Below are positions 13,706 through 53,866 of a stretch of DNA of 64,000 nucleotides, one piece after another (positions within the stretch are counted from its first letter, which is position 1; the number at the start of each line of letters is the position of its first letter). Origin of the DNA: Botryococcus braunii (taxonomy: Eukaryota > Chlorophyta > Trebouxiophyceae); NCBI GenBank assembly GCA_002005505.1, contig MVGU01001296.1, positions 91,687 through 155,686 on the forward strand. The letters are read 5' to 3'. The notes under the pieces are model-generated. The model was not told the origin of the DNA, ran no database searches, and saw only the letters and a program-made list of their open reading frames with translations. A program made the translations under genes and the position numbers.

Positions 13706-13863
13706 CTATGCAGGTGTGTTTAGTTGTTTCGAGCTTTATTGTATAGTTTGATATATGTAATAGACATTCGATTGCTGTCTCCGGTGCCTCAAGTCGGACC
13801 TCTGTATTTCCGTTTGGCACCGTCCTTTGCCTGCATTAACTCAGCTTTCGCTTGCTATGCAGG
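13706..13863 (+). mobile_element. Copia B(+) LTR, second piece
   Basis: The B LTR continues after the C target duplication. It contains the spacer between the LTR's two 102-bp blocks and the second block, ending CTATGCAGG where element D is inserted. The reverse complement is found within 39531-39683 and 46985-47135. Confidence 0.9.
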
Positions 13864-15373
13864 TGTGACGATATAGCAAGTGCCTGTTATACTAAGTAGC
13901 CATTATGGATTTCGAACAGAATATGTCCTTTCCGGGTGCCCTGGAGACCAGGAAGACTGCGCCCTCGAGTTGGGACTTGCGCGGCTCGAGAGGATTTTGT
14001 ACTGCTTGATAAAACCCTCAATCTTGTGCCCTTTTAAGTCCCAGCCCCGCACGTGTTGGTCTGGAGTGGGTCTTAGAGGGAAATTTGTTGTTTGACACGT
14101 TGTTGGCCCGCACGTTGAAGGCCAGTTTTAATGTGCAGTTCATAAGCAGCTGCTAAACAGTTCCTTGATGTTTCAGGAATCAGCTCGTACTTTCTAGAAC
14201 AGTGGTGACGTGTAATGTTTAGCGTCTCTTCATTGTGAACTTCGTGTCTAGAACTTTCTCCATCAGTCTAGAACTCTCTAGATTTCTTATACGTGTCAGT
14301 TTGTCATGCAATTGAAGTGCGTGGCTGATTGTAAGAGCTTCTCTGGATTCCTCCAGAAGGTTCTAAGTTCTTCTGGACCTTTCGGTTAGAAGGGTCCAGA
14401 ATCTTCCAGAATCTCCGCGTAAGTTCGGGGACGACTGTATAAGGGCGTCCAGCCGTCCTCTAAACCACGCTGTGCTAGGTGTTAGGAGAGGGAAACCTCT
14501 GTCGCAAGTCTCTTTGTAAGCACAAGTTGAACCCCAAGATTCCTACCAGCCACGTCCGTCTCGCCTGCGTTAATGTGCCAGACCGTTTGTCCTTGAATGT
14601 CCTAGTCGTAACTTGATCTACCCCACTTGTCTGTCGTAACTCGTCGCAATTGTGAAGCAACACCTCTGAAACTCAGTGCCAGTATTGATTTGGATATCTT
14701 CAATCAAATCTTAATAGTATCAGTGAGCATTCCACCCTTTTAGCAAGAACCGAAGATCAATACCAAGATCTAGCCGTCCCACCTTCGTGCCGTAACAATC
14801 AATTTACCTGTTCCAGTACCTATAGTAATTCATAGTTTAACATATAGTCGTTCATAAATTTCATTTAACAAGCGCCGCAAGTAATTTGGTACGAAGCCGC
14901 CACACCTAAGTCGTAACATCACGCACAGTAGTACCAACCCGGATCCTGAAAAGGAGCATCAAACCCTAACAGTAGGATTAGAATAAAATAGATTAACACC
15001 TTTGAAAGTGAAATATCTGATTTATAACTCCAGTTAAGATCATACTCCAGCCGTCAACCCCCAAAGTCCGATAGCCCGGCCTGCGATAGGCCGTAAGCCG
15101 GTGATCCCGACTACGAAACTCCGACTAAAACATCCGTGACTTGAACCGCAGCAGTCTCCGATTGTAACCTCCAGCCATCGAATCGCAGAATCGAAAGTAC
15201 CAGTAATCCAGTAATCCGGTAACCCAGGTCTCAAGGCCGAATCCTTGAGTGGCGATCCGCATAATTTACCTTGATACAGAAGCCGCAGCCCAGCTATTAC
15301 TAACCGTAGTTGCATAATCTCTAATTTCAATCAGAAAAAAATTTGTCTACCTTGGGTAACGGGAATCCCTATA
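13864..15373 (+). repeat. Terminal repeat 1 of element D
   Basis: It starts TGTGACGATATAGC and shares 1511 bases with the third repeat, up to CCCTATAT. A primer-binding site beginning TGG probably starts at 15374, so the repeat would end TA. It carries GTATAAG where repeats 2 and 3 have TATATAAG. The reading frames visible in it on either strand are short and show no recognisable motif. Confidence 0.85.
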
Positions 15374-16292
15374 TGGCGATCCGTCCAGGGAGTTTTAGCG
15401 CGTTGAATTAGTCAGCGCCTGAGCTCTCCGAATCTGGCCTTCTGCGCAGATTTGCCGTGTTTATAGCACCACGTGAGTACCGTATTTGGAATCAGTTGAG
15501 CTTTGTCCACTTATAGAACTGGGTATACCCCTTTAGGAGGGGCTTGATTACATTCCGTGTGTCGCAGGAACGACAGCAAAGACATCAGCAACGACCGTTT
15601 GCAGCGAAACCATATATTAGGAAAGTTCAGTTTGAAGCACCCCATCATTGTACTGAAGAAGTTAGTTGAGACAATCTGATAGCTTTCAGTACTTGTTTTC
15701 TGTTTGAACACAATTGAGAAATAGTAAATATTATACTATTGGAATCGCGTTTGCATATCTGTTTCTTTTTCGAAATCTTAGCAACATCAAAGATCGCGGT
15801 TTCGTGATACACACCTGTGGAAATACATAATATTTCGATCTCATATTTAGAAGGAAGGTCTGGTTTCACATTAAAAGTACTTCCAGAGTTCATCTGCACT
15901 GTTTGCATTTATGAGTTGAAGGTCCGAGGTTGGCGTAACTAGCTGAATTGAGACTCGAGCTTCTGCAAATCCTGAAATACTTATAGTTTGTTTTATCGTT
16001 TGTTGGAGAATTAAAATTATTAAGAAGCTTCAGAGTACCCTGATTTGAAAGAAGACTTATCTGCAACTCCATTATCAGAGTTAGTGAGATGCCCCTTTAG
16101 GAGGGGTCTGATTACACTCCGTTTGTTGAACAGGCACCCCTACAGCCAGCTATAATAGCAGAATCAGCATTTAAGTATATCCCAGTATCAACATTATCTG
16201 ACATTAATTAGTATAGTGAACACTCGAGCGTAATCTCTAATAGTGTGTTAGGCAATCTAGAGCAAAAGACCTTGTTTGATTGAACAATTATC
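15374..16292 (+). other. Leader of element D, unit 1, with probable primer-binding site
   Basis: TGGCGATCCGTCCAGGGA at 15374-15391 follows the terminal repeat and begins with the TGG expected of a site pairing with a tRNA 3' CCA end; I cannot name the tRNA. A motif of about 35 bases containing the hairpin CCCCTTTAGGAGGGG followed by TGATTACA occurs twice, at 15528 and 16092. The rest holds no recognisable coding sequence. Confidence 0.6.
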
Positions 16293-19200
16293 ATGGCAGA
16301 CATACAAGCCCCAGTACGTTTGGAATTTTTCTATGGAAAGCCTACAGAGGACCCTTTTCAGTGGTTAGAGTCTTTTGAACTTTTTCTTGAGATCAACCAA
16401 GTAGTGGGTGATCGGGTTTTACGTTTTGTTAAGCATGCCATGCGCGAGGAGGCTTACACCTGGTTCCGCGCAAATCAAGATGATATACATGACTGGGATG
16501 ACTGTAAAGAGGCCTTTCTTGAACGATTTGGCCTTGATGAAGACACCCTTATGTTAAAGTTAGACACATGTGCACAATTGTCAAATGAGACCGTTCGCAG
16601 CTACGCTGACAGATACAGGAAATTAGTGGGTTACTTGCAGAACTCTCTGCCACCCAGGATGGTGACCCAGTTATTTGTGAAAGGCTTAGTTCCCCATCTT
16701 AGGGAGCGAGTACAGATGACCTACCCCGGCAATGGAGCGTTAGCCGACATAATACGTTTGGCTGCAAACTATGAACAGACCTTTGGGCATGCACCATTAG
16801 GAGGTATGTACGTTAATCAAAACACAGAAGTACCAGCACGCGAAAGAAGTGAGCCTTGGACTCGCCGCCCGATTGACAATGTGGATCAGCGAGCGCCACG
16901 CGCGCCGCAGCAGCAAAATCAAAGGGAGAACAACAGAGATAACAGAGAAAATAGAAACTGGCCGCGTCAGCGAGATTTCCCCGAGAGGCGTAATCAGCCG
17001 CAACCAGCAGCACCGCCAAGACAGATTGCACCAGCTAACCTACCTAGGGAGGCACCTCTTCCGCCACCCGCAACCGATATAGATACGCTTACCAGGGAAA
17101 TGGAGAGACTCAGAATCCAAATTGCAGAATTATAGAGGCCCATGCCCGCCGCTAATTTTACTCAGTTTCATGAGGACCCAGCCGAGGAGGAACAGCCCCA
17201 AGTAAGGATGATGTATGATGGGTTTACTGACCCATTCCCCGTCTATGCCACCAAAAGACCAGCCGAAAATCCACCTGAATTGGATCAGCCATTGCTACGC
17301 CGCCGGCCTAATAATGTGCAAAACACCACTGTGGACCCCAGATCTTCAAATAGGCCAGCTGCCCCAGGGCCTAATGAACCTTCAGCACCAAGAAATAATC
17401 CTTCAACTGCTGCACCGCCTACGCCAGCCCCAGTACCTGCTTTTCCTAGGAGGGCACCTGCGCCGCGCCCGCCAGTCGACTTAGGGGGACTGCCACCACT
17501 TCCAGATCCTCCCCGGCCGGCGTACCGGAGACCACCAGTTGTGCCAGCCCCTTCCAGCGAGCCTATCCAACAAATTAAAGGCTTACCCATGAAGCTGACA
17601 GTACAATCATATTTGAATCATATAAGTGAGGAGGAATTTCAAAGATCCATCCAGGAGCTACATGCGTCCCGCCAACAATTCCAGCGAAGCAAGCAAATCA
17701 CTTCAACACCACCAAGAGCTGTGGAGGCAGAGCTTGTAGTAATCTCTAGCGACACCTCCGTGAGCCCCTCAGCCAGCGACACGCCCGAGGCGCCGCGAGT
17801 CCAACAGCATCTGCAACGCAACCCGATCAGCACCACTGTAGCCACAGTCCCTATTATTCTTAACAATACTATCTTTGACGAAGGAATTATCGACACTGGA
17901 GCAACAAATACCATGATATCGCAATCTGCAGCTAGACAATTGGGCATGCTTAACCAGATCGAGCCTTGTAGACTTAAGTACTCTTGTGCTGATGGCAACA
18001 TGTCTGCCCCATGGGGCATAATTAGAAAGCTTCCAGTAGGTGTTGATGGATTGATATTCCCAATTGACGTTTTTGTTAGTGGAGCGACAAACTACGATGT
18101 ACTGCTGGGTACCGATTGGCTAACACAAGCCCACGCCGAGATCAGCTTTGCCAAGTCAGAAATGTCATACAAAATAGACCCTAACCTCATTGGGAAAGTC
18201 CCTATAACAGTACTGCCGTCTGATAAGACTTTTAATCGTTATTGTGTTATGCGGGCTCCCGGTGAGAACCTGGGAGACCCGGAGGGACCGGAGGGACCAG
18301 CACTGCCAGAAGTAATTTATTTCGACGAGAGCGGCTCTGACACCTCTGCGCCCGAGGATTCAAGTGAAGAAGAAGCCAGTAGTGAAGAGACTGCCAGTTC
18401 ACCGTCTGAAGAAGAATACCCAGACCTTAACGAGGAGCCACCAGCAATGCAAGTAGACTTTTTAAATTCCACCGCCGCCGACATCACCCTTGCAGAGGGA
18501 CCATTTCTCCCGCCGCCTTCCACGAATAACACCGAAGACTGGATGCTAGAAAAGACTATATTCAAAGACATTGAGGAGCAATTCGGCCCATTTGACCTTG
18601 ACGCTTGCTGCGATCAGGAAGGCCGTAACTCTCAATTGCCTTACTTTTGGACACCCCAGCAAGACTGTTTAAAGCAAGATTGGACCCACAAGAACATTTA
18701 TTGCAATCCACCTTTTTCAAAAGCAATGGAGATTGTGCAGCACTGCCTCACATGTTATGACAGCAGCCCAACCACGACGTCAGCCGTCCTTGTTTTACCC
18801 TGGTGGCCTGAAGCCACATGGTTTCCGATAGTAATGGAGAAATTCCAAATCGTTCGACAATATCCTCTAGGAGTGCAGCTGTTCACAGCCCCGGGACGAT
18901 CCCCCAGCTTTTCTCGCATGCGTGTGGGGCCTACTCGTTGGCCGGTAATGATTGTGAAGACACCTGCACCCAACTTGATTGAAGACCCTGGCCTACAGAA
19001 ATTGCCAGACATCCAAATAATTAAAGAGGAGACATACCACCTTGAGCCGGAAGAGGTTCCCCTGGGGACCGCAATTTTACCCGAAGAGCGCAAGCGCGCC
19101 CTTGGACTTGTTATGGAGTACAGGGATGTGTTTTCCCCCGGCATTACGCAGCAACGTACGACTCTAATTCATCATAGGATAGGCCCCGGCTTGCCGCACC

Positions 19201-20144
19201 TTATCGCTGTCCCTGCAGAAGCAGTGGTACACCAAGACAAAAGTCTAACGGGAGCTCCCATGCAGCCTAAGTCTGCCGCAATACAATCAGAAGTAGTTAA
19301 TTTACGTCTACCGACGCAACCCCGGGATGCGCATTCCCCGGATCACCTTCAACACGCAGTAAATAGTATGCAGAAGCCTCAGATTGACCGTAGTCACAAT
19401 GTATTAAGTACCCCCACGAGCCCTCGCTTGTGCGTCGCCCCAGCGAACTCATGCAACATAAAAGACTCAGACCACTTCAGCCCACTGTTCGCGTCAGCAA
19501 AAGTAATGTGTTCTATGTTAGAACCAGTTCACTTTAAAAGTGCCCCACATGATAGTACTGGGAGTGCCATGTCTTCTTTAGGCTGGACGCACAGATGTTG
19601 TAGTGTTTTACCTAGAGTGTTTGGAATTCCCACAAGACTTGTTGAAATATTTAGAAAAGGAATAGTATTGCCCGCATTGAAAAGGTTTAAAGTAGCTTAT
19701 ATCACCACCGGTAGAATGCTAAAGGATGCAACCTCCCTACGAAGGAAGACCATGCATGATAAGAAGCTTGCTATAGGGGACTTTAGCCAAAGCAGTGTCA
19801 TGTTGGCATGTCGGAGTTTGGATTTGGAAGGAATACGTATGCAAGGAGCCGCGGCACGAGCAATTCAGCCCTGCGCAACTATACTCATGGACCAAGGGTC
19901 CCTGATCAACAACGGTGATGCCGCAAATGCGGTGCATTCTGAATCACCTCCCCAACACGCAGCAACCGACAACAACACCTACAAAGTACCTTGCAGCAAG
20001 GGCGAAGTACAAGAACTTATTCCGGGGTCAATGACCAAGGATCAGGTGTGCCGCATGCCGCCGTCACAACTTGGGTCATTCTGCTATCATGGATATCTCA
20101 ACGAGAAATATGCAACACGTCAGCGCATCCGAGCATCAATCTAA
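16293..20144 (+). pseudogene. Gag-protease-methyltransferase ORF of element D, unit 1, broken by one nonsense codon
   Basis: This is the same polyprotein as the intact ORF in unit 2, with which it is almost identical. TAG at 17133-17135 (CAG in unit 2) ends translation after 280 residues, just past the Gag domain. An ATG at 17142 follows six bases later, so the remaining 1000 codons stay open and could be read by reinitiation or readthrough. That would leave Gag separate from the protease-methyltransferase part. Other residue differences from unit 2 are Glu for Asp in PP(E/D)LDQ and Ala for Val in TG(A/V)PMQ. I treat the TAG as decay, but a Gag/Pol-type stop cannot be excluded from two copies. 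Confidence 0.85.
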
Positions 20145-20636: not shown

Positions 20637-22143
20637 TGTGACGATATAGCAGTGCCTGTTATACTAAGTAGCCATTATGGATTTCGAACAGAATATGTCC
20701 TTTCCGGGTGCCCTGGAGACCAGGAAGACTGCGCCCTCGAGTTGGGACTTGCGCGGCTCGAGAGGATTTTGTACTGCTTGATAAAACCCTCAATCTTGTG
20801 CCCTTTAAGTCCCAGCCCCGCACGTGTTGGTCTGGAGTGGGTCTTAGAGGGAAATTTGTTGTTTGACACGTTGTGGCCCGCACGTTGAAGGCCAGTTTTA
20901 ATGTGCAGTTCATAAGCAGCTGCTAAACAGTTCCTTGATGTTTCAGGAATCAGCTCGTACTTTCTAGAAAAGTGGTGACGTGTAATGTTTAGCGTCTCTT
21001 CATTGTGAACTTCGTGTCTAGAACTTTCTCCATCAGTCTAGAACTCTCTAGATTTCTTATACGTGTCAGTTTGTCATGCATTGAAGTGCGTGGCTGATTG
21101 TAAGAGCTTCTCTGGATTCCTCCAGAAGGTTCTAAGTTCTTCTGGACCTTTCGGTTAGAAGGGTCCAGAATCTTCCAGAATCTCCGCGTAAGTTCGGGGA
21201 CGACTATATAAGGGCGTCCAGCCGTCCTCTAAACCACGCTGTGCTAGGTGTTAGGAGAGGGAAACCTCTGTCGCAAGTCTCTCTGTAAGCACAAGTTGAA
21301 CCCCAAGATTCCTACCAGCCACGTCCGTCTCGCCTGCGTTAATGTGCCAGACCGTTTGTCCTTGAATGTCCTAGTCGTAACTTGATCTACCCCACTTGTC
21401 TGTCGTAACTCGTCGCAATTGTGAAGCAACACCTCTGAAACTCAGTGCCAGTATTGATTTGGATATCTTCAATCAAATCTTAATAGTATCAGTGAGCATT
21501 CCACCCTTTTAGCAAGAACCGAAGATCAATACCAAGATCTAGCCGTCCCACCTTCGTGCCGTAACAATCAATTTACCTGTTCCAGTACCTATAGTAATTC
21601 ATAGTTTAACATATAGTCGTTCATAAATTTCATTTAACAAGCGCCGCAAGTAATTTGGTACGAAGCCGCCACACCTAAGTCGTAACATCACGCACAGTAG
21701 TACCAACCCGGATCCTGAAAAGGAGCATCAAACCCTAACAGTAGGATTAGAATAAAATAGATTAACACCTTTGAAAGTGAAATATCTGATTTATAACTCC
21801 AGTTAAGATCATACTCCAGCCGTCAACCCCCAAAGTCCGATAGCCCGGCCTGCGATAGGCCGTAAGCCGGTGATCCCGACTACGAAACTCCGACTAAAAC
21901 ATCCGTGACTTGAACCGCAGCAGTCTCCGATTGTAACCTCCAGCCATCGAATCGCAGAATCGAAAGTACCAGTAATCCAGTAATCCGGTAACCCAGGTCT
22001 CAAGGCCGAATCCTTGAGTGGCGATCCGCATAATTTACCTTGATACAGAAGCCGCAGCCCAGCTATTACTAACCGTAGTTGCATAATCTCTAATTTCAAT
22101 CAGAAAAAAATTTGTCTACCTTGGGTAACGGGAATCCCTATAT
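20637..22143 (+). repeat. Terminal repeat 2 of element D (shared, middle)
   Basis: It is 1507 bp long. Against repeats 1 and 3 it lacks single bases in four short runs (GCAAG, CCTTTTAAG, GTTGTTGG, CAATTG) and has at least two substitutions. It ends unit 1 and begins unit 2. Confidence 0.85.
21204..21211 (+). promoter_or_regulatory. Putative TATA box in terminal repeat 2 of element D
   Basis: CTATATAAGGGCG is the best TATA-box match in the repeat. It lies about 570 bp into it, a position that would place the transcript start well within the repeat. The third repeat has the same sequence at 27979-27986, and the first has GTATAAG at 14437. Confidence 0.5.
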
Positions 22144-23061
22144 GGCGATCCGTCCAGGGAGTTTTAGCGCGTTGAATTAGTCAGCGCCTGAGCTCTCCGA
22201 ATCTGGCCTTCTGCGCAGATTTGCCGTGTTTATAGCACCACGTGAGTACCGTATTTGGAATCAGTTGAGCTTTGTCCACTTATAGAACTGGGTATACCCC
22301 TTTAGGAGGGGCTTGATTACATTCCGTGTGTCGCAGGAACGACAGCAAAGACATCAGCAACGACCGTTTGCAGCGAAACCATATATTAGGAAAGTTCAGT
22401 TTGAAGCACCCCATCATTGTACTGAAGAAGTTAGTTGAGACAATCTGATAGCTTTCAGTACTTGTTTTCTGTTTGAACACAATTGAGAAATAGTAAATAC
22501 TATACTATTGGAATCGCGTTTGCATATCTGTTTCTTTTTCGAAATCTTAGCAACATCAAAGATCGCGGTTTCGTGATACACACCTGTGGAAATACATAAT
22601 ATTTCGATCTCATATTTGGAAGGAAGGTCTGGTTTCACATTAAAAGTACTTCCAGAGTTCATCTGCACTGTTTGCATTTATGAGTTGAAGGTCCGAGGTT
22701 GGCGTAACTAGCTGAATTGAGACTCGAGCTTCTGCAAATCCTGAAATACTTATAGTTTGTTTTATCGTTTGTTGGAGAATTAAAATTATTAAGAAGCTTC
22801 AGAGTACCCTGATTTGAAAGAAGACTTATCTGCAACTCCATTATCAGAGTTAGTGAGATGCCCCTTTAGGAGGGGTCTGATTACACTCCGTTTGTTGAAC
22901 AGGCACCCCTACAGCCAGCTATAATAGCAGAATCAGCATTTAAGTATATCCCAGTATCAACATTATCTGACATTAATTAGTATAGTGAACACTCGAGCGT
23001 AATCTCTAATAGTGTGTTAGGCAATCTAGAGCAAAAGACCTTGTTTGATTGAACAATTATC
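22144..23061 (+). other. Leader of element D, unit 2
   Basis: It nearly matches the unit 1 leader, differing at a few single bases. It includes the candidate primer-binding site directly after the repeat and the two hairpin-bearing repeats at 22297 and 22861. Confidence 0.6.
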
Positions 23062-26000
23062 ATGGCAGACATACAAGCCCCAGTACGTTTGGAATTTTTC
23101 TATGGAAAGCCTACAGAGGACCCTTTTCAGTGGTTAGAGTCTTTTGAACTTTTTCTTGAGATCAACCAAGTAGTGGGTGATCGGGTTTTACGTTTTGTTA
23201 AGCATGCCATGCGCGAGGAGGCTTACACCTGGTTCCGCGCAAATCAAGATGATATACATGACTGGGATGACTGTAAAGAGGCCTTTCTTGAACGATTTGG
23301 CCTTGATGAAGACACCCTTATGTTAAAGTTAGACACATGTGCACAATTGTCAAATGAGACCGTTCGCAGCTACGCTGACAGATACAGGAAATTAGTGGGT
23401 TACTTGCAGAACTCTCTGCCACCCAGGATGGTGACCCAGTTATTTGTGAAAGGCTTAGTTCCCCATCTTAGGGAGCGAGTACAGATGACCTACCCCGGCA
23501 ATGGAGCGTTAGCCGACATAATACGTTTGGCTGCAAACTATGAACAGACCTTTGGGCATGCACCATTAGGAGGTATGTACGTTAATCAAAACACAGAAGT
23601 ACCAGCACGCGAAAGAAGTGAGCCTTGGACTCGCCGCCCGATTGACAATGTGGATCAGCGAGCGCCACGCGCGCCGCAGCAGCAAAATCAAAGGGAGAAC
23701 AACAGAGATAACAGAGAAAATAGAAACTGGCCGCGTCAGCGAGATTTCCCCGAGAGGCGTAATCAGCCGCAACCAGCAGCACCGCCAAGACAGATTGCAC
23801 CAGCTAACCTACCTAGGGAGGCACCTCTTCCGCCACCCGCAACCGATATAGATACGCTTACCAGGGAAATGGAGAGACTCAGAATCCAAATTGCAGAATT
23901 ACAGAGGCCCATGCCCGCCGCTAATTTTACTCAGTTTCATGAGGACCCAGCCGAGGAGGAACAGCCCCAAGTAAGGATGATGTATGATGGGTTTACTGAC
24001 CCATTCCCCGTCTATGCCACCAAAAGACCAGCCGAAAATCCACCTGACTTGGATCAGCCATTGCTACGCCGCCGGCCTAATAATGTGCAAAACACCACTG
24101 TGGACCCCAGATCTTCAAATAGGCCAGCTGCCCCAGGGCCTAATGAACCTTCAGCACCAAGAAATAATCCTTCAACTGCTGCACCGCCTACGCCAGCCCC
24201 AGTACCTGCTTTTCCTAGGAGGGCACCTGCGCCGCGCCCGCCAGTCGACTTAGGGGGACTGCCACCACTTCCAGATCCTCCCCGGCCGGCGTACCGGAGA
24301 CCACCAGTTGTGCCAGCCCCTTCCAGCGAGCCTATCCAACAAATTAAAGGCTTACCCATGAAGCTGACAGTACAATCATATTTGAATCATATAAGTGAGG
24401 AGGAATTTCAAAGATCCATCCAGGAGCTACATGCGTCCCGCCAACAATTCCAGCGAAGCAAGCAAATCACTTCAACACCACCAAGAGCTGTGGAGGCAGA
24501 GCTTGTAGTAATCTCTAGCGACACCTCCGTGAGCCCCTCAGCCAGCGACACGCCCGAGGCGCCGCGAGTCCAACAGCATCTGCAACGCAACCCGATCAGC
24601 ACCACTGTAGCCACAGTCCCTATTATTCTTAACAATACTATCTTTGACGAAGGAATTATCGACACTGGAGCAACAAATACCATGATATCGCAATCTGCAG
24701 CTAGACAATTGGGCATGCTTAACCAGATCGAGCCTTGTAGACTTAAGTACTCTTGTGCTGATGGCAACATGTCTGCCCCATGGGGCATAATTAGAAAGCT
24801 TCCAGTAGGTGTTGATGGATTGATATTCCCAATTGACGTTTTTGTTAGTGGAGCGACAAACTACGATGTACTGCTGGGTACCGATTGGCTAACACAAGCC
24901 CACGCCGAGATCAGCTTTGCCAAGTCAGAAATGTCATACAAAATAGACCCTAACCTCATTGGGAAAGTCCCTATAACAGTACTGCCGTCTGATAAGACTT
25001 TTAATCGTTATTGTGTTATGCGGGCTCCCGGTGAGAACCTGGGAGACCCGGAGGGACCGGAGGGACCAGCACTGCCAGAAGTAATTTATTTCGACGAGAG
25101 CGGCTCTGACACCTCTGCGCCCGAGGATTCAAGTGAAGAAGAAGCCAGTAGTGAAGAGACTGCCAGTTCACCGTCTGAAGAAGAATACCCAGACCTTAAC
25201 GAGGAGCCACCAGCAATGCAAGTAGACTTTTTAAATTCCACCGCCGCCGACATCACCCTTGCAGAGGGACCATTTCTCCCGCCGCCTTCCACGAATAACA
25301 CCGAAGACTGGATGCTAGAAAAGACTATATTCAAAGACATTGAGGAGCAATTCGGCCCATTTGACCTTGACGCTTGCTGCGATCAGGAAGGCCGTAACTC
25401 TCAATTGCCTTACTTTTGGACACCCCAGCAAGACTGTTTAAAGCAAGATTGGACCCACAAGAACATTTATTGCAATCCACCTTTTTCAAAAGCAATGGAG
25501 ATTGTGCAGCACTGCCTCACATGTTATGACAGCAGCCCAACCACGACGTCAGCCGTCCTTGTTTTACCCTGGTGGCCTGAAGCCACATGGTTTCCGATAG
25601 TAATGGAGAAATTCCAAATCGTTCGACAATATCCTCTAGGAGTGCAGCTGTTCACAGCCCCGGGACGATCCCCCAGCTTTTCTCGCATGCGTGTGGGGCC
25701 TACTCGTTGGCCGGTAATGATTGTGAAGACACCTGCACCCAACTTGATTGAAGACCCTGGCCTACAGAAATTGCCAGACATCCAAATAATTAAAGAGGAG
25801 ACATACCACCTTGAGCCGGAAGAGGTTCCCCTGGGGACCGCAATTTTACCCGAAGAGCGCAAGCGCGCCCTTGGACTTGTTATGGAGTACAGGGATGTGT
25901 TTTCCCCCGGCATTACGCAGCAACGTACGACTCTAATTCATCATAGGATAGGCCCCGGCTTGCCGCACCTTATCGCTGTCCCTGCAGAAGCAGTGGTACA

Positions 26001-26913
26001 CCAAGACAAAAGTCTAACGGGAGTTCCCATGCAGCCTAAGTCTGCCGCAATACAATCAGAAGTAGTTAATTTACGTCTACCGACGCAACCCCGGGATGCG
26101 CATTCCCCGGATCACCTTCAACACGCAGTAAATAGTATGCAGAAGCCTCAGATTGACCGTAGTCACAATGTATTAAGTACCCCCACGAGCCCTCGCTTGT
26201 GCGTCGCCCCAGCGAACTCATGCAACATAAAAGACTCAGACCACTTCAGCCCACTGTTCGCGTCAGCAAAAGTAATGTGTTCTATGTTAGAACCAGTTCA
26301 CTTTAAAAGTGCCCCACATGATAGTACTGGGAGTGCCATGTCTTCTTTAGGCTGGACGCACAGATGTTGTAGTGTTTTACCTAGAGTGTTTGGAATTCCC
26401 ACAAGACTTGTTGAAATATTTAGAAAAGGAATAGTATTGCCCGCATTGAAAAGGTTTAAAGTAGCTTATATCACCACCGGTAGAATGCTAAAGGATGCAA
26501 CCTCCCTACGAAGGAAGACCATGCATGATAAGAAGCTTGCTATAGGGGACTTTAGCCAAAGCAGTGTCATGTTGGCATGTCGGAGTTTGGATTTGGAAGG
26601 AATACGTATGCAAGGAGCCGCGGCACGAGCAATTCAGCCCTGCGCAACTATACTCATGGACCAAGGGTCCCTGATCAACAACGGTGATGCCGCAAATGCG
26701 GTGCATTCTGAATCACCTCCCCAACACGCAGCAACCGACAACAACACCTACAAAGTACCTTGCAGCAAGGGCGAAGTACAAGAACTTATTCCGGGGTCAA
26801 TGACCAAGGATCAGGTGTGCCGCATGCCACCGTCACAACTTGGGTCATTCTGCTATCATGGATATCTCAACGAGAAATATGCAACACGTCAGCGCATCCG
26901 AGCATCAATCTAA
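23062..26913 (+). CDS. Gag-protease-Dam-like methyltransferase polyprotein, intact copy of element D
   Basis: A 1283-codon ORF starts at ATG. Residues 1-170 form a Ty3-type Gag capsid domain (FFYGKPTEDPFQWL, YADRYRKLVGYL). Residues 185-275 are rich in Arg, Asn and Gln with no CCHC knuckle. After a Pro-rich linker comes an aspartic protease with DTGA at 534 and the later LLGTDWL motif. An acidic Ser/Glu stretch follows. Residues about 748-890 resemble phage-type adenine-N6 methyltransferases (Dam, PF05869): FDLDACCD at 767-774, two Trp-containing motifs, and the catalytic-type CNPPFS at 804-809. Residues about 905-960 recall the stretch before RT in Ty3 Pol (EYRDVFSPGI). The expected RT is absent, and the last 320 or so residues match nothing I know. 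No RNase H or integrase is present. Confidence 0.88.
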   Translation: MADIQAPVRLEFFYGKPTEDPFQWLESFELFLEINQVVGDRVLRFVKHAMREEAYTWFRANQDDIHDWDDCKEAFLERFGLDEDTLMLKLDTCAQLSNETVRSYADRYRKLVGYLQNSLPPRMVTQLFVKGLVPHLRERVQMTYPGNGALADIIRLAANYEQTFGHAPLGGMYVNQNTEVPARERSEPWTRRPIDNVDQRAPRAPQQQNQRENNRDNRENRNWPRQRDFPERRNQPQPAAPPRQIAPANLPREAPLPPPATDIDTLTREMERLRIQIAELQRPMPAANFTQFHEDPAEEEQPQVRMMYDGFTDPFPVYATKRPAENPPDLDQPLLRRRPNNVQNTTVDPRSSNRPAAPGPNEPSAPRNNPSTAAPPTPAPVPAFPRRAPAPRPPVDLGGLPPLPDPPRPAYRRPPVVPAPSSEPIQQIKGLPMKLTVQSYLNHISEEEFQRSIQELHASRQQFQRSKQITSTPPRAVEAELVVISSDTSVSPSASDTPEAPRVQQHLQRNPISTTVATVPIILNNTIFDEGIIDTGATNTMISQSAARQLGMLNQIEPCRLKYSCADGNMSAPWGIIRKLPVGVDGLIFPIDVFVSGATNYDVLLGTDWLTQAHAEISFAKSEMSYKIDPNLIGKVPITVLPSDKTFNRYCVMRAPGENLGDPEGPEGPALPEVIYFDESGSDTSAPEDSSEEEASSEETASSPSEEEYPDLNEEPPAMQVDFLNSTAADITLAEGPFLPPPSTNNTEDWMLEKTIFKDIEEQFGPFDLDACCDQEGRNSQLPYFWTPQQDCLKQDWTHKNIYCNPPFSKAMEIVQHCLTCYDSSPTTTSAVLVLPWWPEATWFPIVMEKFQIVRQYPLGVQLFTAPGRSPSFSRMRVGPTRWPVMIVKTPAPNLIEDPGLQKLPDIQIIKEETYHLEPEEVPLGTAILPEERKRALGLVMEYRDVFSPGITQQRTTLIHHRIGPGLPHLIAVPAEAVVHQDKSLTGVPMQPKSAAIQSEVVNLRLPTQPRDAHSPDHLQHAVNSMQKPQIDRSHNVLSTPTSPRLCVAPANSCNIKDSDHFSPLFASAKVMCSMLEPVHFKSAPHDSTGSAMSSLGWTHRCCSVLPRVFGIPTRLVEIFRKGIVLPALKRFKVAYITTGRMLKDATSLRRKTMHDKKLAIGDFSQSSVMLACRSLDLEGIRMQGAAARAIQPCATILMDQGSLINNGDAANAVHSESPPQHAATDNNTYKVPCSKGEVQELIPGSMTKDQVCRMPPSQLGSFCYHGYLNEKYATRQRIRASI

Positions 26914-27406
26914 AAGGAGCAGCATATTTGGAAGGGTTTGGATTCCCGAAGTGGGAGCAATAATATCACACAGGCTTTTAGTCCCGAAAGACTGGCTTTA
27001 ATCAACCATGTACACCTTCATGGTGGAAGCAATCTGACGCATTCGAACTCTGGTGGAGGAAAATAATTAGTCGTCTATGGTAATTATGCGTTTCTACAAG
27101 TGGTATCTGATATGCCACCATATTGGCAAAGTTACGCATCCGCACACAGTACATAGGTTGTACCTTATTGACCCATTCATTGCAGTACAAGAATATATTG
27201 TGACCACCTCAATGCAAGCAAAACCCTCTTTGAGAGTCAGGATTTCCACGTAAGTTGGCCCCTGAGTTAGACTTAACATCTCATGCAACATCAAATCGTA
27301 CCTTATTTTACCTAACAAGCTGTACCTTATGCAGGCCAAAAGGCTGCTTCTCGAAAAGACGTACCCAGTCTTTTCCTTCCTTTTAGGGGGGGAAGGACGT
27401 GACATA
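26914..27406 (+). other. 3' region and polypurine tract of element D, unit 2
   Basis: It is equivalent to 20145-20636, with the GTACCTTAT motifs and a purine run of seven G's (eight in unit 1) before AAGGACGTGACATA. It differs from unit 1 by a few single-base indels, such as CGCACACAG against CGCACCAG. Confidence 0.65.
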
Positions 27407-28929
27407 TGTGACGATATAGCAAGTGCCTGTTATACTAAGTAGCCATTATGGATTTCGAACAGAATATGTCCTTTCCGGGTGCCCTGGAGACCAGGAAGAC
27501 TGCGCCCTCGAGTTGGGACTTGCGCGGCTCGAGAGGATTTTGTACTGCTTGATAAAACCCTCAATCTTGTGCCCTTTTAAGTCCCAGCCCCGCACGTGTT
27601 GGTCTGGAGTGGGTCTTAGAGGGAAATTTGTTGTTTGACACGTTGTTGGCCCGCACGTTGAAGGCCAGTTTTAATGTGCAGTTCATAAGCAGCTGCTAAA
27701 CAGTTCCTTGATGTTTCAGGAATCAGCTCGTACTTTCTAGAACAGTGGTGACGTGTAATGTTTAGCGTCTCTTCATTGTGAACTTCGTGTCTAGAACTTT
27801 CTCCATCAGTCTAGAACTCTCTAGATTTCTTATACGTGTCAGTTTGTCATGCAATTGAAGTGCGTGGCTGATTGTAAGAGCTTCTCTGGATTCCTCCAGA
27901 AGGTTCTAAGTTCTTCTGGACCTTTCGGTTAGAAGGGTCCAGAATCTTCCAGAATCTCCGCGTAAGTTCGGGGACGACTATATAAGGGCGTCCAGCCGTC
28001 CTCTAAACCACGCTGTGCTAGGTGTTAGGAGAGGGAAACCTCTGTCGCAAGTCTCTTTGTAAGCACAAGTTGAACCCCAAGATTCCTACCAGCCACGTCC
28101 GTCTCGCCTGCGTTAATGTGCCAGACCGTTTGTCCTTGAATGTCCTAGTCGTAACTTGATCTACCCCACTTGTCTGTCGTAACTCGTCGCAATTGTGAAG
28201 CAACACCTCTGAAACTCAGTGCCAGTATTGATTTGGATATCTTCAATCAAATCTTAATAGTATCAGTGAGCATTCCACCCTTTTAGCAAGAACCGAAGAT
28301 CAATACCAAGATCTAGCCGTCCCACCTTCGTGCCGTAACAATCAATTTACCTGTTCCAGTACCTATAGTAATTCATAGTTTAACATATAGTCGTTCATAA
28401 ATTTCATTTAACAAGCGCCGCAAGTAATTTGGTACGAAGCCGCCACACCTAAGTCGTAACATCACGCACAGTAGTACCAACCCGGATCCTGAAAAGGAGC
28501 ATCAAACCCTAACAGTAGGATTAGAATAAAATAGATTAACACCTTTGAAAGTGAAATATCTGATTTATAACTCCAGTTAAGATCATACTCCAGCCGTCAA
28601 CCCCCAAAGTCCGATAGCCCGGCCTGCGATAGGCCGTAAGCCGGTGATCCCGACTACGAAACTCCGACTAAAACATCCGTGACTTGAACCGCAGCAGTCT
28701 CCGATTGTAACCTCCAGCCATCGAATCGCAGAATCGAAAGTACCAGTAATCCAGTAATCCGGTAACCCAGGTCTCAAGGCCGAATCCTTGAGTGGCGATC
28801 CGCATAATTTACCTTGATACAGAAGCCGCAGCCCAGCTATTACTAACCGTAGTTGCATAATCTCTAATTTCAATCAGAAAAAAATTTGTCTACCTTGGGT
28901 AACGGGAATCCCTATATTAGGACGTGACA
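27407..28929 (+). repeat. Terminal repeat 3 of element D with 12-base extension
   Basis: Bases 27407-28917 match repeat 1 in length (1511), differing visibly only at the TATA box. After CCCTATAT it has TAGGACGTGACA before the second CAGG. The 11-mer AGGACGTGACA also stands just before repeats 2 and 3 (20624 and 27394), but it is absent where repeats 1 and 2 meet their leaders. The element therefore ends in a short sequence otherwise found at the 3' end of its internal region. Confidence 0.82.
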
Positions 28930-28979
28930 CAGGAATCCTGAAACTGTTTTTGATCAAATTGACATCAAATAATCGAATA
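28930..28979 (+). mobile_element. Copia B(+) LTR, third and last piece
   Basis: After the second CAGG the B LTR resumes with AATCCTGAAACTG and ends AATCGAATA, the same end as the B(-) LTRs. The flank that follows, GCAAGAGCAAGC, is the exact complement of the flank of B(-) at 39473-39484. Both B copies therefore share one insertion point in an F LTR. Confidence 0.88.
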
Positions 28980-29293
28980 GCAAGAGCAAGCTTCAATTTG
29001 CATCAAACAGACAGGACTTCCATTCCGTGGCACAGGATTCGGCCAACCAACGAATGACGAGTCTGTCGCCTCCAGCAGTTAAATACCTGACCGTGTTTGG
29101 CGCCCAAGGGACTCGATAAAAGTCGAGTCCCTGAAAGCTTCTCACTCCAAAAGGTCCCTATTTGGTAATCCAATACGGATGATGTGTCCTAGACAAAATA
29201 CCTAAAGGTCCCATTTTCTGTACCTAATTAAACACACTGATGTGGCCGCCTAAGAATTAGTTTGACTGACCTCGAATACGTATTCGAGGTCCC
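28980..29293 (-). repeat. Fragment of family F LTR, inverted
   Basis: This is the reverse complement of 39171-39484, with the same private variants. It ends with a perfect 24-bp palindrome (29268-29291: GACCTCGAATAC followed by its reverse complement) plus CC, and then switches to F internal coding sequence on the opposite strand. Confidence 0.9.
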
Positions 29294-29456
29294 AAGCAGG
29301 AGAAGCAGAATGTACTGGGAGGGGTACTGGAGTTGACACTGACTCTGCAGTGGAGGGTGATTCAAGTGCTGTTGATCAGTGTAGCGATGACAATGCTGTT
29401 GCTATGCATGTACGTGATGAGGCTGTAGGGAGGCTTGTTAATGCAAAATGTGAATC
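29294..29456 (+). pseudogene. pol: Gag-Pol linker fragment of copia F1, before the E insertion
   Basis: It encodes about 52 residues of the variable region between integrase and RT of family F (GEAECTGRGTGVDTD to NAKCES). It matches the F2 coding sequence at about 56175-56340 and F3 at about 63155-63320. All of gag, protease and integrase is missing, because the 5' side is joined to an inverted F LTR fragment. It is interrupted at GAATC by copia E and resumes at 36694. Confidence 0.9.
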
Positions 29457-30351: not shown

Positions 30352-30643
30352 TTTCCAAGCTGAGCTTGCAGTGACGCACGACAGATTTCCAGGGAGAAAA
30401 GGGGTTTCGGACCCCGCTTCGAGACTGCGAGCTTCACTGACGAGTGAGGTCTGGCCGTTCAAACATATCGAGCTAGTCACGTAAAATTATTCCTTCTGTA
30501 GTGCTGGAAGGAATTGTTGTACAGTAGCAACTGGGCTGGGAAAGCAGAAGTACTTCTGGGACTGATCAACTCAGTGTCAGAGCTAGGAAGAAGTGCTTCC
30601 AGGGGAAGTCATTTAAGGCTTGGAGTGAAGAACTGGCTTGATC
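30352..30643 (+). other. Leader of copia E
   Basis: This is untranslated sequence between the primer-binding site and the first ATG at 30644. I see nothing recognisable in it. Confidence 0.45.
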
Positions 30644-33600
30644 ATGAAAACTAGAAGCAGACAAGTGATCATGAAAACGAGAAGTAAGCGCACTGCAACG
30701 GAGTCTGGATCAGCTGGGTCTGGCTCCTCCATCAGTGCATCACCCAGCCAGCCAGCAAACTCCACTGCGCAGAGTGGAGAGATGTGCATCGCAATGACGA
30801 AAACCGGTGGCGTCGTCACCACGAATGTCAAATGTCCAGTGACTCTGGACAGAGAGGGAGTGGAATTTCCACTCTGGGATCTGGCATATGTGGCAGCCTG
30901 TGGCCTCAAAAGGTGCAAGGCAGCCATTGAAGCTCCAATGCCAGACACAGAGGAGAATGCAGCAGCGCTCCTAATGCTGATTGAGAGCGTCCCCAAGGCG
31001 TGGGGTGCCAAGCTGGCTGCAATGCAAGTGGCAGCCAATGCCTACCAGTGGGTTCGAGAGCGTTTTACTGGAGGGGCAGACCAGGAGGTAACAGCACGCT
31101 GGCTGGAGCTCCTACACACCAGCATGGGAGAGACAGAAACGTTGGAGGACTACTACAACAGGAAGGTGGCACTCTTCCATGCACTCAAGCGAAATGGGCA
31201 CTCCATCATGGAGAGAGAAGCCAAGCTGGCAATCATCAAGGGCCTGCCAGAGGAAGCGAAGGAGACTGGGATGTTCTCCTCATCTGCTGGGAAGGATCTG
31301 GAGGGACTGTGGGAGATCATCTCCACCACAGCCAAGGGACTGGGCTTCAACGACCAGGTCCCCAGAGTCACCCCTGTGGCCAGGGCAGCCATCACACCAG
31401 CCTACTCCACCACACCAGGGACTGCAAGCCCACAGGAGACCCAAGCTGGAGGCCAGGGGGGCCAAGCTTCATCGACCAAGGTGGAGGGACGGGACCGGCG
31501 TGACAACAGGCGCTGCCGCTACTGCAACAAGCTAGGCCATTTTGAGAGGAACTGCCTCAAGAAGGAGGCGGACGAGAAGATGCAACAGAACCTGCAGCAA
31601 GTCATGGCTGCAATGGCCAATCTGCTTCCGCAATTCCAAAATCAAGCGTCGGCTGCAGTGGCTCGACCTCCGGAGGGCAGCGGGAACGGCAACAACTTTT
31701 TCCCCGGGGGATATCCACCACCCTCTGGTATGTCTGCCATGATTTCTCTGAATGTCTTAACACCAACACGCGTCATGCCAGAAGCGAGAAGTTTTCTGGT
31801 GGACAGTGGAGCCACCATCCACCTAGTCAATGATCTGTCCCTGCTACATTCCCCCACCCTGCACAGAAATCCCATTCCTTTGCATATGGCTACGTCAGAT
31901 GCCACGGGACAGATAATTGCAACTGGTTCCCTGTGCTTGAGCAGTGCAGAACAGCAACCCCTGTGGCTTCACAATGTGCATTGTGTTCCTTCAGCTACAG
32001 CTAATCTGATTTCAGTGACAGCTGCTATACGTGATGGGGCTAGTTTTGTGACAGACAGTGTGGGAAGTTACACTGGTATGCGTGGCGCTCAAAACTGGTC
32101 TTGTTCAGTTGCACAGAGAAATGGCCTGTATTTCTTGCAGAAGGTCAGTCCAGTCAGAAACCCTGCCTCTGTGTTTGTTAACACAGCCAGAGCACCAGTC
32201 GCTCATGATTGCAGATTGAGAGCACTGTGGCACAGTAGACTGGGGCACCCAGGGGAGGTTAATATGAGGCGACTGCAGTCTGAAGATTTGGTCCTGGGCA
32301 TCCCTGTATCTCTCTCCCCTTGCGCAAACTGTCACTCTTCGTGTGAAGCGTGCATTCAAGGAAAGCACAGTCGTCCCCCTTTTGGAACCAGTTCCAGAGC
32401 AGCCACTGAGCCCCTTGAGAGAATTCATTTGGACACAGTTGGCCCCATCTCCCCTACAGCTATTACTGGGGAGCGCTTCTTTGTCACGATTGTGGATGAG
32501 GCTACGCACTACGTCATAGCCCTGGCAGTAAAAACCAAGGATGCAATCAGCAGTGCAGTCAGAGACCTCCTGATTTTTTGGCAGAGGCAGTTGAACCGCT
32601 CTGTTAAGTGCATTCGTACTGACAGGGGGACAGAATTCCTCAACAGTACATTGAAGGGTTTCTGTACGCAGGAGGGAATTAAATTTGAGACCTCTGCAGC
32701 ATACACGCCTCAGCAAAATGGCGTTGCTGAACGGATGAACCGAACAATCAAGGAGAAGGCCAGAACACTCATGTTGCATGCAGCTGCCAAACAGTCACTC
32801 TGGAAGGAAGCAGTGGAGACAGCCTGCATCCTGTACAATATGGGACCTGTGACTGGACGTGACAAGACGCCTTATGAAGCCTTCCATGGGGTAAAGCCCG
32901 ATGTATCCCTGCTCAGGACTTTTGGCTGTCTAGCACATGTGCACATACCTGATCACCAAAGGGGAGTGTTTGAGTCTAAGACCTCCCCTGGTCTCTTCAC
33001 AGGGTATTCCAGTGTGTCAAAGGCATATAGAATTTATATGGGAAACGGGATTTGGAAAGAAAGCAGAGATGTTACCTTTCTGGAGCACTTAAGGGGCGCA
33101 GACAGAGTGGGGCTTAGCACCATGTCTCCTGTGAGTCCAAATGCAGTCCAGCAGCCCTTTGCCTTGCCTTTTGTACAACAGGAGGGCCAGCAGTCCTTGG
33201 GTCAGTTGTCTTTTTGGGACTCAGATGATCCTGAGCCTCTCTGCAACCGAGAGGTCAACGTGCAGCAGTCCGGACCTGACTCCCCCTGTGCAACCACCCC
33301 CTGTGCAACTACCCCATGTGCAATCAACCCCTGTGAGAATTCTGAGACTACAAGTGTCAACGTGGACGGGGAGCCCACTTCCTCGGAGCTGAGCCATACG
33401 CAGTCCGGCCACAGCTGGTCCGTACTCGGACACATGGAGAACCTGGCGCGAGGAGGCGAGGAGACCAAGTCACACATGCAACGTTTGAATAATGTGCAAG
33501 AATGTGTTCGAATGGAAGTTGGGGCCATGGGTGTCCGAGGGCAAGACGGGCTGACCCGGCAGCAACGGTATGATCAGAGAGTAGCAGCACGTGAGACTGC

Positions 33601-38863: not shown

Positions 38864-39484
38864 TGTTGTAGGTAATGACCTAGATCAGGTATTACTTAGG
38901 GAGCATTACTGTTGGACTTATTCAGAGGTATTCTTCTGACTCATCCTAGGCAAAACAGTCGTGCATGCCAGGCTGCCCTGGACGGCACGACACTGTTGTG
39001 CCTTAGGTCTAAACTACTGCATATGTCTCCCAGCTAGTCCTAGGAACTTGGCTGTGAAGCGACATAATTCCTTGACAGACTTCAGTCTTCCTCACGTAAC
39101 TTCACGAAGAGGTTACGACAACTTTGCATTGACTCACACAGCATCGTGGCACTCAATGGAATATGTTTTTGGGACCTCGAATACGTATTCGAGGTCAGTC
39201 AAACTAATTCTTAGGCGGCCACATCAGTGTGTTTAATTAGGTACAGAAAATGGGACCTTTAGGTATTTTGTCTAGGACACATCATCCGTATTGGATTACC
39301 AAATAGGGACCTTTTGGAGTGAGAAGCTTTCAGGGACTCGACTTTTATCGAGTCCCTTGGGCGCCAAACACGGTCAGGTATTTAACTGCTGGAGGCGACA
39401 GACTCGTCATTCGTTGGTTGGCCGAATCCTGTGCCACGGAATGGAAGTCCTGTCTGTTTGATGCAAATTGAAGCTTGCTCTTGC
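38864..39484 (+). repeat. LTR of copia F1, truncated at its 3' end by B(-)
   Basis: It starts TGTTGTAGGTAATGACC and covers about 620 of the roughly 808 bases of the full LTR. It holds the 24-bp palindrome at 39173-39196. Bases 39171-39484 are the reverse complement of 28980-29293. Confidence 0.92.
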
Positions 39485-40261
39485 TATTCGATTATTTGAT
39501 GTCAATTTGATCAAAAACAGTTTCAGGATTCCTGCATAGCAAGCGAAAGCTGAGTTAATGCAGGCAAAGGACGGTGCCAAACGGAAATACAGAGGTCCGA
39601 CTTGAGGCACCGGAGACAGCAATCGAATGTCTATTACATATATCAAACTATACAATAAAGCTCGAAACAACTAAACACACCTTCATAGCAAGCGAAAGCT
39701 GAGTTAATGCAGGCAAAGGACGGTGCCAAACGGAAATACAGAGGTCCGACTTGAGGCACCGGAGACAGCAATCGAATGTCTGAGGATACGACTCTGTCTC
39801 TACCCCTTTATCAACCTAGAATCGTTGTTCCGTGCAAAACAGATTCCTATTGACAGAATACTACTTTCCAGAATGCTATATGCCGCGTCGATCGGCCCAG
39901 TCGATCAGCTCCGTCGACACTTATGGACAGAAATACTTCTACGCCTTGTCGATCGGCCTCGTCGACTCATTCGTAAAATAACCGATCGTACTTAAGAACA
40001 AGTACACTTTGCAGCCAATTGTTTATTGTACGTGTCCGATCGACTCATACTTCGAAATCGACCGAATCAACAAGAGTCCGAAACATCCGTTGTCGTCCTA
40101 AAATATCCGTATCTCTAAGAACCTCCGGATTTTACGAAAAAACCCAATTTTTGCAAAGTAAGATAACTGTTCATTATTGTAGGGCCATAAACTAAGGTTC
40201 ATACGAACATGCAACTTATGCTAAGACATTATATGTCCAATAAAAGATGTCTTTGCCAACA
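39485..40261 (-). repeat. 3' LTR of copia B(-)
   Basis: On the minus strand it starts TGTTGGCAAAGACATC and ends AATCGAATA. It contains a block of about 102 bp twice, separated by about 47 bases, as do the other B LTR copies. Confidence 0.92.
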
Positions 40262-53780: not shown

Positions 53781-53866
53781 TAAACCCAAACAAAGGAGCG
53801 CAACCCCAAACCGAAAAGCAAAGATGCTTAAAAAAAATTTTGTCAAGCCAATCAAAGCAGAAGTGA

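What the first reader, a model, noticed from the sequence alone, without database searches (positions are those of the whole stretch)
23062..26913. Adenine-N6 methyltransferase domain inside a Gag-protease polyprotein
The 1283-residue ORF joins a Ty3-type Gag, an aspartic protease (DTGA) and a domain with FDLDACCD and CNPPFS in the order and spacing of phage-type Dam methyltransferases (PF05869). Such domains are known in DIRS-like tyrosine-recombinase elements, and cytosine methyltransferases have been reported in LTR elements of dinoflagellates and a charophyte. I know of no described Gag-protease-adenine methyltransferase arrangement. The catalytic-type NPPF is retained, and both D units keep the domain open. 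The element might methylate its own DNA copy or insertion site, or affect silencing. That role is inference.
Basis: partly seen in the sequence, partly recalled or inferred. Interest (0 to 1): 0.88.

Follow-up and report, generated by a model that had tools for sequence, protein, structure and literature searches.

The report
Retrotransposon lineage carrying adenine methyltransferase
A family of jumping genes in what looks like a green alga carries, in the middle of its protein chain, a well-preserved enzyme domain of the kind that puts methyl groups on adenine, which suggests that the element chemically marks its own genetic material.

Summary
ORF 23062-26913 joins Ty3-type Gag, an aspartic protease and a PF05869 Dam domain (58 bits, cut-off 28.1). 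A predicted model (pLDDT 87.7) has the SAM-methyltransferase fold; its best solved matches are adenine-N6 methyltransferases. The same 176-Mb genome holds 72 Dam places over the cut-off. One copy with nearly the same LTR reads Gag-PR-Dam-RT-RNaseH-PHD-integrase in one 2001-codon frame. So this is an autonomous Ty3 lineage with Dam in the PR-RT linker, plus a Dam-keeping deletion derivative. Dam is under purifying selection (median dN/dS 0.09-0.21) and follows 60 of 63 close protease copies. The module also sits in copia, DIRS-like and RNaseH-Dam-integrase proteins; the 20 retroelement Dams treed split from seven phage/viral ones at 100/99. Against an essential enzyme: 5 of 12 metagenomic Ty3 relatives have a changed NPPF. 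Substrate (element DNA, or RNA) is untested. Ten literature searches listed no Dam in a Ty3 or copia element.

The parts
13860..13863 (.). target-site duplication CAGG, left copy
   Evidence: the flanks 13706-13863 and 28930-29295 meet with a 4-nt overlap in the inverted copies 39531-39688 and 39169-39534 (coordinates); letters
13864..15374 (+). LTR 1 (1511-nt repeat, starts TGTGACG)
   Evidence: 1 mismatch in 1511 to 27407-28917
16293..17135 (+). unit 1 Gag ORF, ended by an in-frame TAG
   Evidence: Retrotrans_gag 1.1e-11; 1 TAG
17142..20144 (+). unit 1 PR-Dam-tail ORF (1000 codons)
   Evidence: Dam 1.2e-15 at res 465-568, gag-asp_proteas 1.5e-9
20637..22143 (+). LTR 2, shared by the two units
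   Evidence: 99.63% to LTR 1 over an aligned 2430 nt that include the leader
23194..23457 (+). Gag domain (res 45-132)
   Evidence: PF03732 9e-11
24652..24897 (+). aspartic protease (res 531-612)
   Evidence: PF13975 2e-9
25297..25731 (+). Dam-type adenine-N6 methyltransferase module (res 746-890)
   Evidence: PF05869 over 748-851; retroelement Dam profile 746-890; AlphaFold2 model
25363..25383 (+). DLDACCD motif (res 768-774)
   Evidence: D.DACCD kept in 67 of 68 genomic copies read
25474..25485 (+). NPPF catalytic-type motif (res 805-808)
   Evidence: NPPF in 55 of 68 genomic copies read
25952..26913 (+). non-homologous tail where RT starts in autonomous relatives
   Evidence: 97.3% DNA match to autonomous L041 stops at 25951; dN/dS 0.66 against 0.14 for Dam in four copies
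26413..27064 (+). part of the tail region about 81% like DNA 3' of pol in family C elements
27407..28917 (+). LTR 3
28930..28933 (.). target-site duplication CAGG, right copy

Best explanation
The window holds a young tandem insertion of a non-autonomous LTR element derived from an autonomous Ty3 lineage whose polyprotein is Gag-PR-Dam-RT-RNaseH-PHD-integrase. The Dam module is a SAM-dependent adenine-N6 methyltransferase-type domain between protease and RT. It is kept by selection in autonomous elements and in the RT/integrase-deleted derivative, which presumably makes or shares Gag particles and borrows RT and integrase in trans. Most likely mechanism: the domain enters the particle with the polyprotein and N6-methylates adenines of the newly made cDNA (or of the just-integrated copy), so that the new copy resembles host 6mA-marked permissive chromatin or resists host nucleases or silencing. 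Shown: anatomy, homology, predicted fold, selection. Inferred: catalytic activity, DNA as substrate, packaging, trans-supply and benefit. Confidence is about 0.95 for the anatomy and about 0.4 for the mechanism; the number given is for the whole statement.
Against: No activity or 6mA data. In 12 metagenomic Ty3 relatives with the domain, the NPPF position is altered in 5 (HPPF in P0004 and P0009, NSPF in P0008, HPPP in P0010, QPPI in P0011), two of which have RT in frame; three further relatives (P0012-P0014) show no Dam. So catalysis is not indispensable to every lineage. 13 of 68 genomic copies have a changed NPPF. The copies used for dN/dS were complete and stop-free (58 of 68, 47 unique), which lowers dN. 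In one pair (L041-L003) Dam had 2 nonsynonymous and 1 synonymous change, and Dam against the adjacent linker is not significant (p = 0.10). The best structural match is an RNA-cap enzyme, so DNA is not the only candidate substrate.
Confidence: 0.5

Rival explanations
1. The domain is an RNA adenine-N6 methyltransferase: it modifies the element's own RNA (for example a cap-proximal adenosine, as PCIF1 does) to aid stability, translation or packaging.
Against: Sequence homology is to PF05869 and to phage proteins annotated as DNA methyltransferases. No solved chain matches by sequence except one meaningless row at E 0.44, so the Z ranking may lack the closest comparator.
Confidence: 0.22
2. The domain no longer works as an enzyme; it is kept as a structural or nucleic-acid-binding spacer between protease and RT.
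For: Altered NPPF in 5 of 12 metagenomic Ty3 relatives, with P0010 and P0011 keeping the overall domain by the retroelement profile; 13 of 68 genomic copies with a changed NPPF; Dam changes faster than PR and RT between L041 and L079 (dN 0.28 against 0.11 and 0.12).
Against: D.DACCD in 67 of 68 and NPPF in 55 of 68 genomic copies read; 7 of 12 metagenomic Ty3 relatives and 4 of 4 other retroelement Dams keep NPP[FWY]. In eight chosen rows from four element types both motifs hold invariant columns (these rows all have the motif intact).
Confidence: 0.18
3. Passive hitch-hiker: a captured fragment with no role, open by chance in young copies.
For: The window insertion is very young (LTR1/LTR3 one mismatch in 1511), so an open frame alone says little.
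Against: Median dN/dS 0.09-0.21; the same module and order in divergent relatives P0010, P0015 and P0016 (44, 29 and 39% identity); the faster tail of the same ORF as internal control.
Confidence: 0.03
4. The domain acts on others: it helps the element or host against DNA viruses or competing elements (the anti-viral proposal for retrotransposon methylases in PMC6338049).
For: Published as a speculation (PMC6338049, passages). The domain weakly matches PADLOC orphan and Type II methyltransferase models.
Against: No restriction partner among the Pfam matches of the polyproteins; nothing here tests the idea.
Confidence: 0.05

Closest known systems
DIRS1-like tyrosine-recombinase retrotransposons (RT-RNaseH-MT pol; MT = PF05869)
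   Same: Same Dam family; the DIRS-like protein P0017 is 40% identical over 147 residues to the window's module, and the role of the DIRS methyltransferase is stated as unknown (PMC3266345, passages).
   Different: DIRS lacks aspartic protease and DDE integrase (PMC3783388, passages) and has its MT after RNaseH. Here the order is Gag-PR-Dam-RT-RH-PHD-IN with direct LTRs and a DDE-type integrase.
KnitGypsy-Dnmt3, SymbioDIRS-Dnmt3 and SymbioLINE-Dnmt (PMC5890265)
   Same: Retrotransposons, including an LTR Gypsy element of a charophyte, with a DNA methyltransferase, in the Gypsy case in Pol and under purifying selection (passages).
   Different: Those are cytosine enzymes, stated there to be structurally unrelated to Dam; here it is an adenine-N6-type domain between PR and RT.
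Phage Dam (PF05869, TIGR01712)
   Same: Same Pfam family; 294 phage records match by tblastn, all under 60% identity, the 30 listed at 24-39%.
   Different: The five annotated phage proteins fetched are separate genes. The seven phage/viral rows treed have NPPY, and they split from the 20 retroelement rows at 100/99. Many retroelement modules, not all, end in a GPTRWPV-like stretch.
PCIF1/CAPAM cap-specific adenosine-N6 methyltransferase
   Different: PF12237 match is below its cut-off; no sequence match to PDB chains.
ParB-plus-methyltransferase proteins in algal DNA transposons
   Same: Algal transposons carrying a 4mC/6mA-type methyltransferase (PMC12477816, passage).
   Different: A separate gene in a DNA transposon, not part of an LTR retrotransposon polyprotein.

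Membership tests
Ty3/Gypsy LTR retrotransposons | Ty3-type Gag and aspartic protease | tested here: met
   PF03732 and PF13975 over their cut-offs; PF19259 Ty3_capsid matches below its cut-off
Ty3/Gypsy LTR retrotransposons | PR-RT-RNaseH-integrase order in pol | tested here: met
   met by relatives L041, L039, P0003, P0010, P0015, P0016
Ty3/Gypsy LTR retrotransposons | RT and integrase in the window element itself | tested here: not met
   no RT or integrase match in either unit's ORFs; homology to L041 stops at 25951: a non-autonomous derivative, so the window copy is filed as derived from the group, not as a complete member
Ty3/Gypsy LTR retrotransposons | direct LTRs and short target duplication | tested here: met
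   three direct LTRs of about 1511 nt; CAGG on both sides, with 12 unexplained nt before the right one
PF05869 Dam adenine-N6 methyltransferases | profile score over the curated cut-off | tested here: met
   58.0 bits, cut-off 28.1; 72 of 72 genomic places over the cut-off
PF05869 Dam adenine-N6 methyltransferases | acidic motif and (D/N)PP(Y/F/W) catalytic motif | tested here: met
   DLDACCD and NPPF in both units; the role of the motifs is recalled
PF05869 Dam adenine-N6 methyltransferases | SAM-dependent methyltransferase (Rossmann-like) fold | tested here: met
   model pLDDT 87.7; best matches are adenine-N6 methyltransferases. A shared fold shows no activity
PF05869 Dam adenine-N6 methyltransferases | methylates adenine N6 of DNA | not testable with these tools
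   needs an enzyme assay or 6mA map
DIRS elements | tyrosine recombinase, no aspartic protease, no DDE integrase | tested here: not met
   aspartic protease present; rve and H2C2 integrase matches in autonomous relatives; no tyrosine-recombinase family listed for them
Retrotransposons with cytosine methyltransferase (KnitGypsy-Dnmt3) | C5 cytosine methyltransferase domain | tested here: not met
   the only methyltransferase family over its cut-off is PF05869
PCIF1 | PF12237 over its cut-off | tested here: inconclusive
   13.5 bits against 31.1, yet the best fold match

The most novel reading that the evidence does not exclude
The Dam module is a travelling self-marking cassette of retroelements. 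Ty3, copia, DIRS-like and RNaseH-Dam-integrase elements exchange it, and each uses it to write N6-methyladenine on its own cDNA so that new copies look like host 6mA/H3K4me3 permissive chromatin. In the Ty3 lineage the PHD finger beside the integrase would steer insertion into the same chromatin, giving one polyprotein with both a writer and a reader of an active-chromatin state.
Probability: 0.2. Interest if true: 0.92.

Novelty: new variant of a known kind. Interest (0 to 1): 0.74.

Why it matters
Methyltransferase capture by retrotransposons is known for adenine enzymes in DIRS elements, with unknown role, and for cytosine enzymes in Gypsy, DIRS and LINE elements. A selected, multi-copy Ty3 lineage with an adenine-type enzyme inside the polyprotein, together with a PHD finger, plus the same module in copia and other contexts, suggests that adenine-enzyme capture is recurrent. 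It gives direct tests of what such enzymes are for: autonomous and deleted families, NPPF-intact and NPPF-altered clades, and Dam-less relatives can be compared, some within one genome.

Tried and rejected
Host name: not found. The Rfam 18S search did not complete. Light-harvesting matches scattered exon by exon, one read by eye as LHCII-like, point to the green lineage; that signature is recalled. The only named proteins among the 20 are two of the alga Cymbomonas tetramitiformis.

DNA context from public collections: P0003 found no viral contig. The Dam alignment A3 found three viral loci at 29-31%; in prokaryote genomes its one pattern hit nine stretches, none confirmed. Protein searches with the P0003 and P0017 Dam regions returned two proteins and one, queries included.

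Foldseek 'pdb' and 'viral' were busy, so the fold comparison rests on one VIA-align job. No PF05869 phage structure is among its 50 rows, which is no evidence against relatedness.

Rows dropped: from the Dam tree the Klebsiella phage protein L084, which the retroelement profile did not report, and L087, identical to L086 over the match; three of its seven 'phage' rows are unannotated (L085) or IMG/VR contigs (L086, L088). From the RT tree P0020, too short. From the protease count 24 partial rows of the 92.

Considered and rejected: contamination by a phage gene (61 of 72 Dam places have the protease just upstream); a DIRS element (protease and DDE-type integrase present); a chance motif match (Pfam score, fold, selection). 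Whether the Ty3 module came from DIRS or the reverse is not resolved: the Ty3 rows need 2 changes on the tree and are one group in 46% of 200 bootstrap trees.

Literature: ten searches listed no paper that I could see describing PF05869/Dam in a Ty3 or copia element. Searches listed only 20 of 160 and 10 of 29 papers; most listed papers I saw as title and start of abstract only, and eight papers as passages. The library lacks most subscription journals and bioRxiv; PMC4738411, a likely place, is not held. [quoted passage not shown]
Full report
OBSERVATION. ORF 23062-26913 (1283 codons, ATG) exists as described. Pfam finds Retrotrans_gag, gag-asp_proteas and Dam PF05869 (58.0 bits, E 1.3e-15, cut-off 28.1), with DLDACCD at residues 768-774 and NPPF at 805-808. 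Of 13 window ORFs scanned (of 24 with at least 150 codons), the two PR-Dam ORFs match Dam; the other 11, one of them unit 1's Gag, do not at E <= 0.1.

THE INSERTION. The ORF belongs to a tandem array: LTR 13864-15374, unit 1, LTR 20637-22143, unit 2, LTR 27407-28917. LTR1 and LTR3 differ at one of 1511 positions, so the insertion is young. The flanks meet with a 4-nt overlap (CAGG) in inverted repeat copies elsewhere in the window (coordinates, letters). Unit 1 has an in-frame TAG in gag. Neither unit's ORFs match RT or integrase.

THE PARENT. The window lies in a 176.1-Mb, 989-contig assembly. The ORF matches 36 places: 16 at 90-100% identity and 20 at 66-69% (lower bounds). One copy (L041, contig C164) reads Gag-PR-Dam-RT-RNaseH-PHD-integrase in a single 2001-codon frame. 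It shares the window's LTR at 98.3% over 1075 nt and 99.9% over 718 nt, the parts held. DNA homology of unit 2 to L041 runs at 97.3% to position 25951, about 50 codons before the RT domain, and resumes at 27355. Between them lies a tail, part of which (26413-27064) is about 81% like DNA that follows pol in family C elements. So the window element is a pol-deleted derivative that has multiplied as a family. The tail was found at 93-100% identity over at least 878 nt at 12 places on 11 contigs, the window's two included (overlapping loci counted once). Related tails, 57-74% identical as protein, occur in metagenome proteins P0002, P0007 and P0012-P0014.

HOW MANY AND HOW WELL KEPT. PF05869 finds 72 places in the genome, all over the cut-off; of 14 control genomes only E. 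coli rings. I read 68 of 72 (four short fragments were not fetched): family A 22, B 30, C 16. D.DACCD is intact in 67 of 68 and NPPF in 55 of 68. 58 are complete and stop-free, and 50 of these have both motifs. A protease search gave 92 places (150 of 600 candidates scored). Of the 68 near-complete ones, 63 have at least 75% identity, and 60 of these 63 have Dam within 1.5 kb downstream; of the five at 59-67%, four have none. One of those four, fetched, has no Dam by profile in the 1.1 kb read.

SELECTION. Among 47 unique complete copies median dN/dS is 0.18 in A, 0.21 in B, 0.09 in C and 0.11 between B and C; A-B and A-C are saturated at synonymous sites. For one pair, L079 (B) and L039 (C): PR 0.02, PR-Dam linker 0.17, Dam 0.12, RT 0.07, integrase 0.05. 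In four intact non-autonomous copies: Gag 0.03, PR 0.03, PR-Dam linker 0.37, Dam 0.14, tail 0.66. Variable codons, nonsynonymous against synonymous only, are 10/17 for Dam and 19/9 for the tail (Fisher p = 0.031), and 17/10 for the linker (Dam against linker p = 0.10). The filter for intact copies lowers dN, and pairs are not independent, so I rely on the contrast with the tail rather than on absolute values. One pair, L041-L003, shows 2 nonsynonymous and 1 synonymous change in Dam.

RELATIVES. One search returned 20 proteins. P0003, P0010, P0015 and P0016 are polyproteins Gag-PR-Dam-RT-RH-PHD-IN, 59, 44, 29 and 39% identical to the query region (over 96, 96, 97 and 48% of it). P0018 is a copia polyprotein with Dam between integrase and RT. 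P0020 (Cymbomonas) has RNaseH-Dam-integrase zinc domain-chromodomain. P0017 and P0019 (Cymbomonas) have RT then Dam, as DIRS does; I did not test them for a tyrosine recombinase. On a 27-row Dam tree, 20 retroelement rows split from seven phage or viral rows at 100/99; within the retroelement side the Ty3 rows are not resolved from the others. On a 13-row RT tree the eight Ty3 rows with the module form one side of a branch at 85/99. So this Ty3 clade may have gained the module once, and the sampled retroelement modules are closer to each other than to the sampled phage enzymes.

CONTRARY RESULTS. Of 12 metagenomic Ty3 proteins carrying the module, five have a changed NPPF position: P0004 and P0009 HPPF, P0008 NSPF, P0010 HPPP, P0011 QPPI, the last with the acidic motif changed as well. 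P0011's Dam is not found by Pfam at E <= 0.01. P0012-P0014 show no Dam. A lineage can therefore live with a changed or absent domain.

MECHANISM. Because the domain sits between PR and RT in the same polyprotein, it should be made with Pol and enter the particle (general knowledge of Ty3 elements). The likeliest substrate is the cDNA made there, or the new insertion. The host has two MT-A70 gene places. One reads like the RNA enzyme METTL3 and one like the DNA enzyme AMT1, both by recalled sequence. Published maps tie AMT1-dependent 6mA to H3K4me3 and permissive chromatin, and note a PHD finger on an AMT1 partner in ichthyosporeans (PMC12695648, passages). An element that writes 6mA and carries a PHD finger beside its integrase would fit a self-marking, chromatin-mimicking strategy. 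This is inference; RNA methylation and a scaffold role remain open.

KNOWN OR NEW. DIRS elements carry PF05869 in pol, with unknown role (PMC3783388 and PMC3266345, passages). Cytosine methyltransferases occur in Gypsy, DIRS and LINE elements (PMC5890265, passages). None of the papers listed by the ten searches was seen to describe an adenine-type enzyme in a Ty3 or copia element; two of those lists were cut. I rate this a new variant of a known kind: a known enzyme family, a known strategy, a new class of carrier and new positions.

Noticed in passing
28918-28929: Twelve nt (TAGGACGTGACA) lie between the end of the LTR3 repeat and the right CAGG; they resemble the internal stretch just before LTR2 and LTR3 (GGACGTGACATA). 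Unexplained; the LTR boundary or PBS may be misread.
   Followed up: partly
L041, L039, L040 (relatives in the genome); P0003, P0010, P0015, P0016: A PHD finger (PF00628) lies between RNaseH and integrase in the polyprotein, unlike the chromodomain after integrase in two other Ty3 elements of the window.
   Followed up: partly
P0018 (ENA), P0020 (Cymbomonas tetramitiformis): Dam also sits between integrase and RT of a copia polyprotein and between RNaseH and the integrase zinc domain of a chromodomain-bearing polyprotein.
   Followed up: partly
L079 (family B) against L039 (family C): From the Dam-RT linker to integrase dS is 0.10-0.42, while PR and Dam have dS over 1.1 and Gag is saturated: the front half was probably swapped by recombination.
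   Followed up: partly
P0002: Gag-PR and the first half of Dam are nearly the window's, but the second half of Dam is of the P0005-P0008 type and lacks GPTRWPV: recombination inside the module.
   Followed up: no
P0001 residues 964-1283; P0002, P0007, P0012-P0014: The tail that replaces pol is 57-74% identical as protein to metagenome relatives, although it changes almost freely among four window-family copies (dN/dS 0.66).
   Followed up: partly
G000 C164:22052-22453 and 22400-23500 (L092): A frame with 63% protease identity and no Dam by profile in the 1.1 kb read.
   Followed up: partly
window 562-4641, 48696-53855, 7778-12991, 30638-35788, 40543-44523, 54201-59174: Much of the rest of the window is other LTR elements: chromodomain Ty3 elements without Dam and copia elements.
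   Followed up: partly
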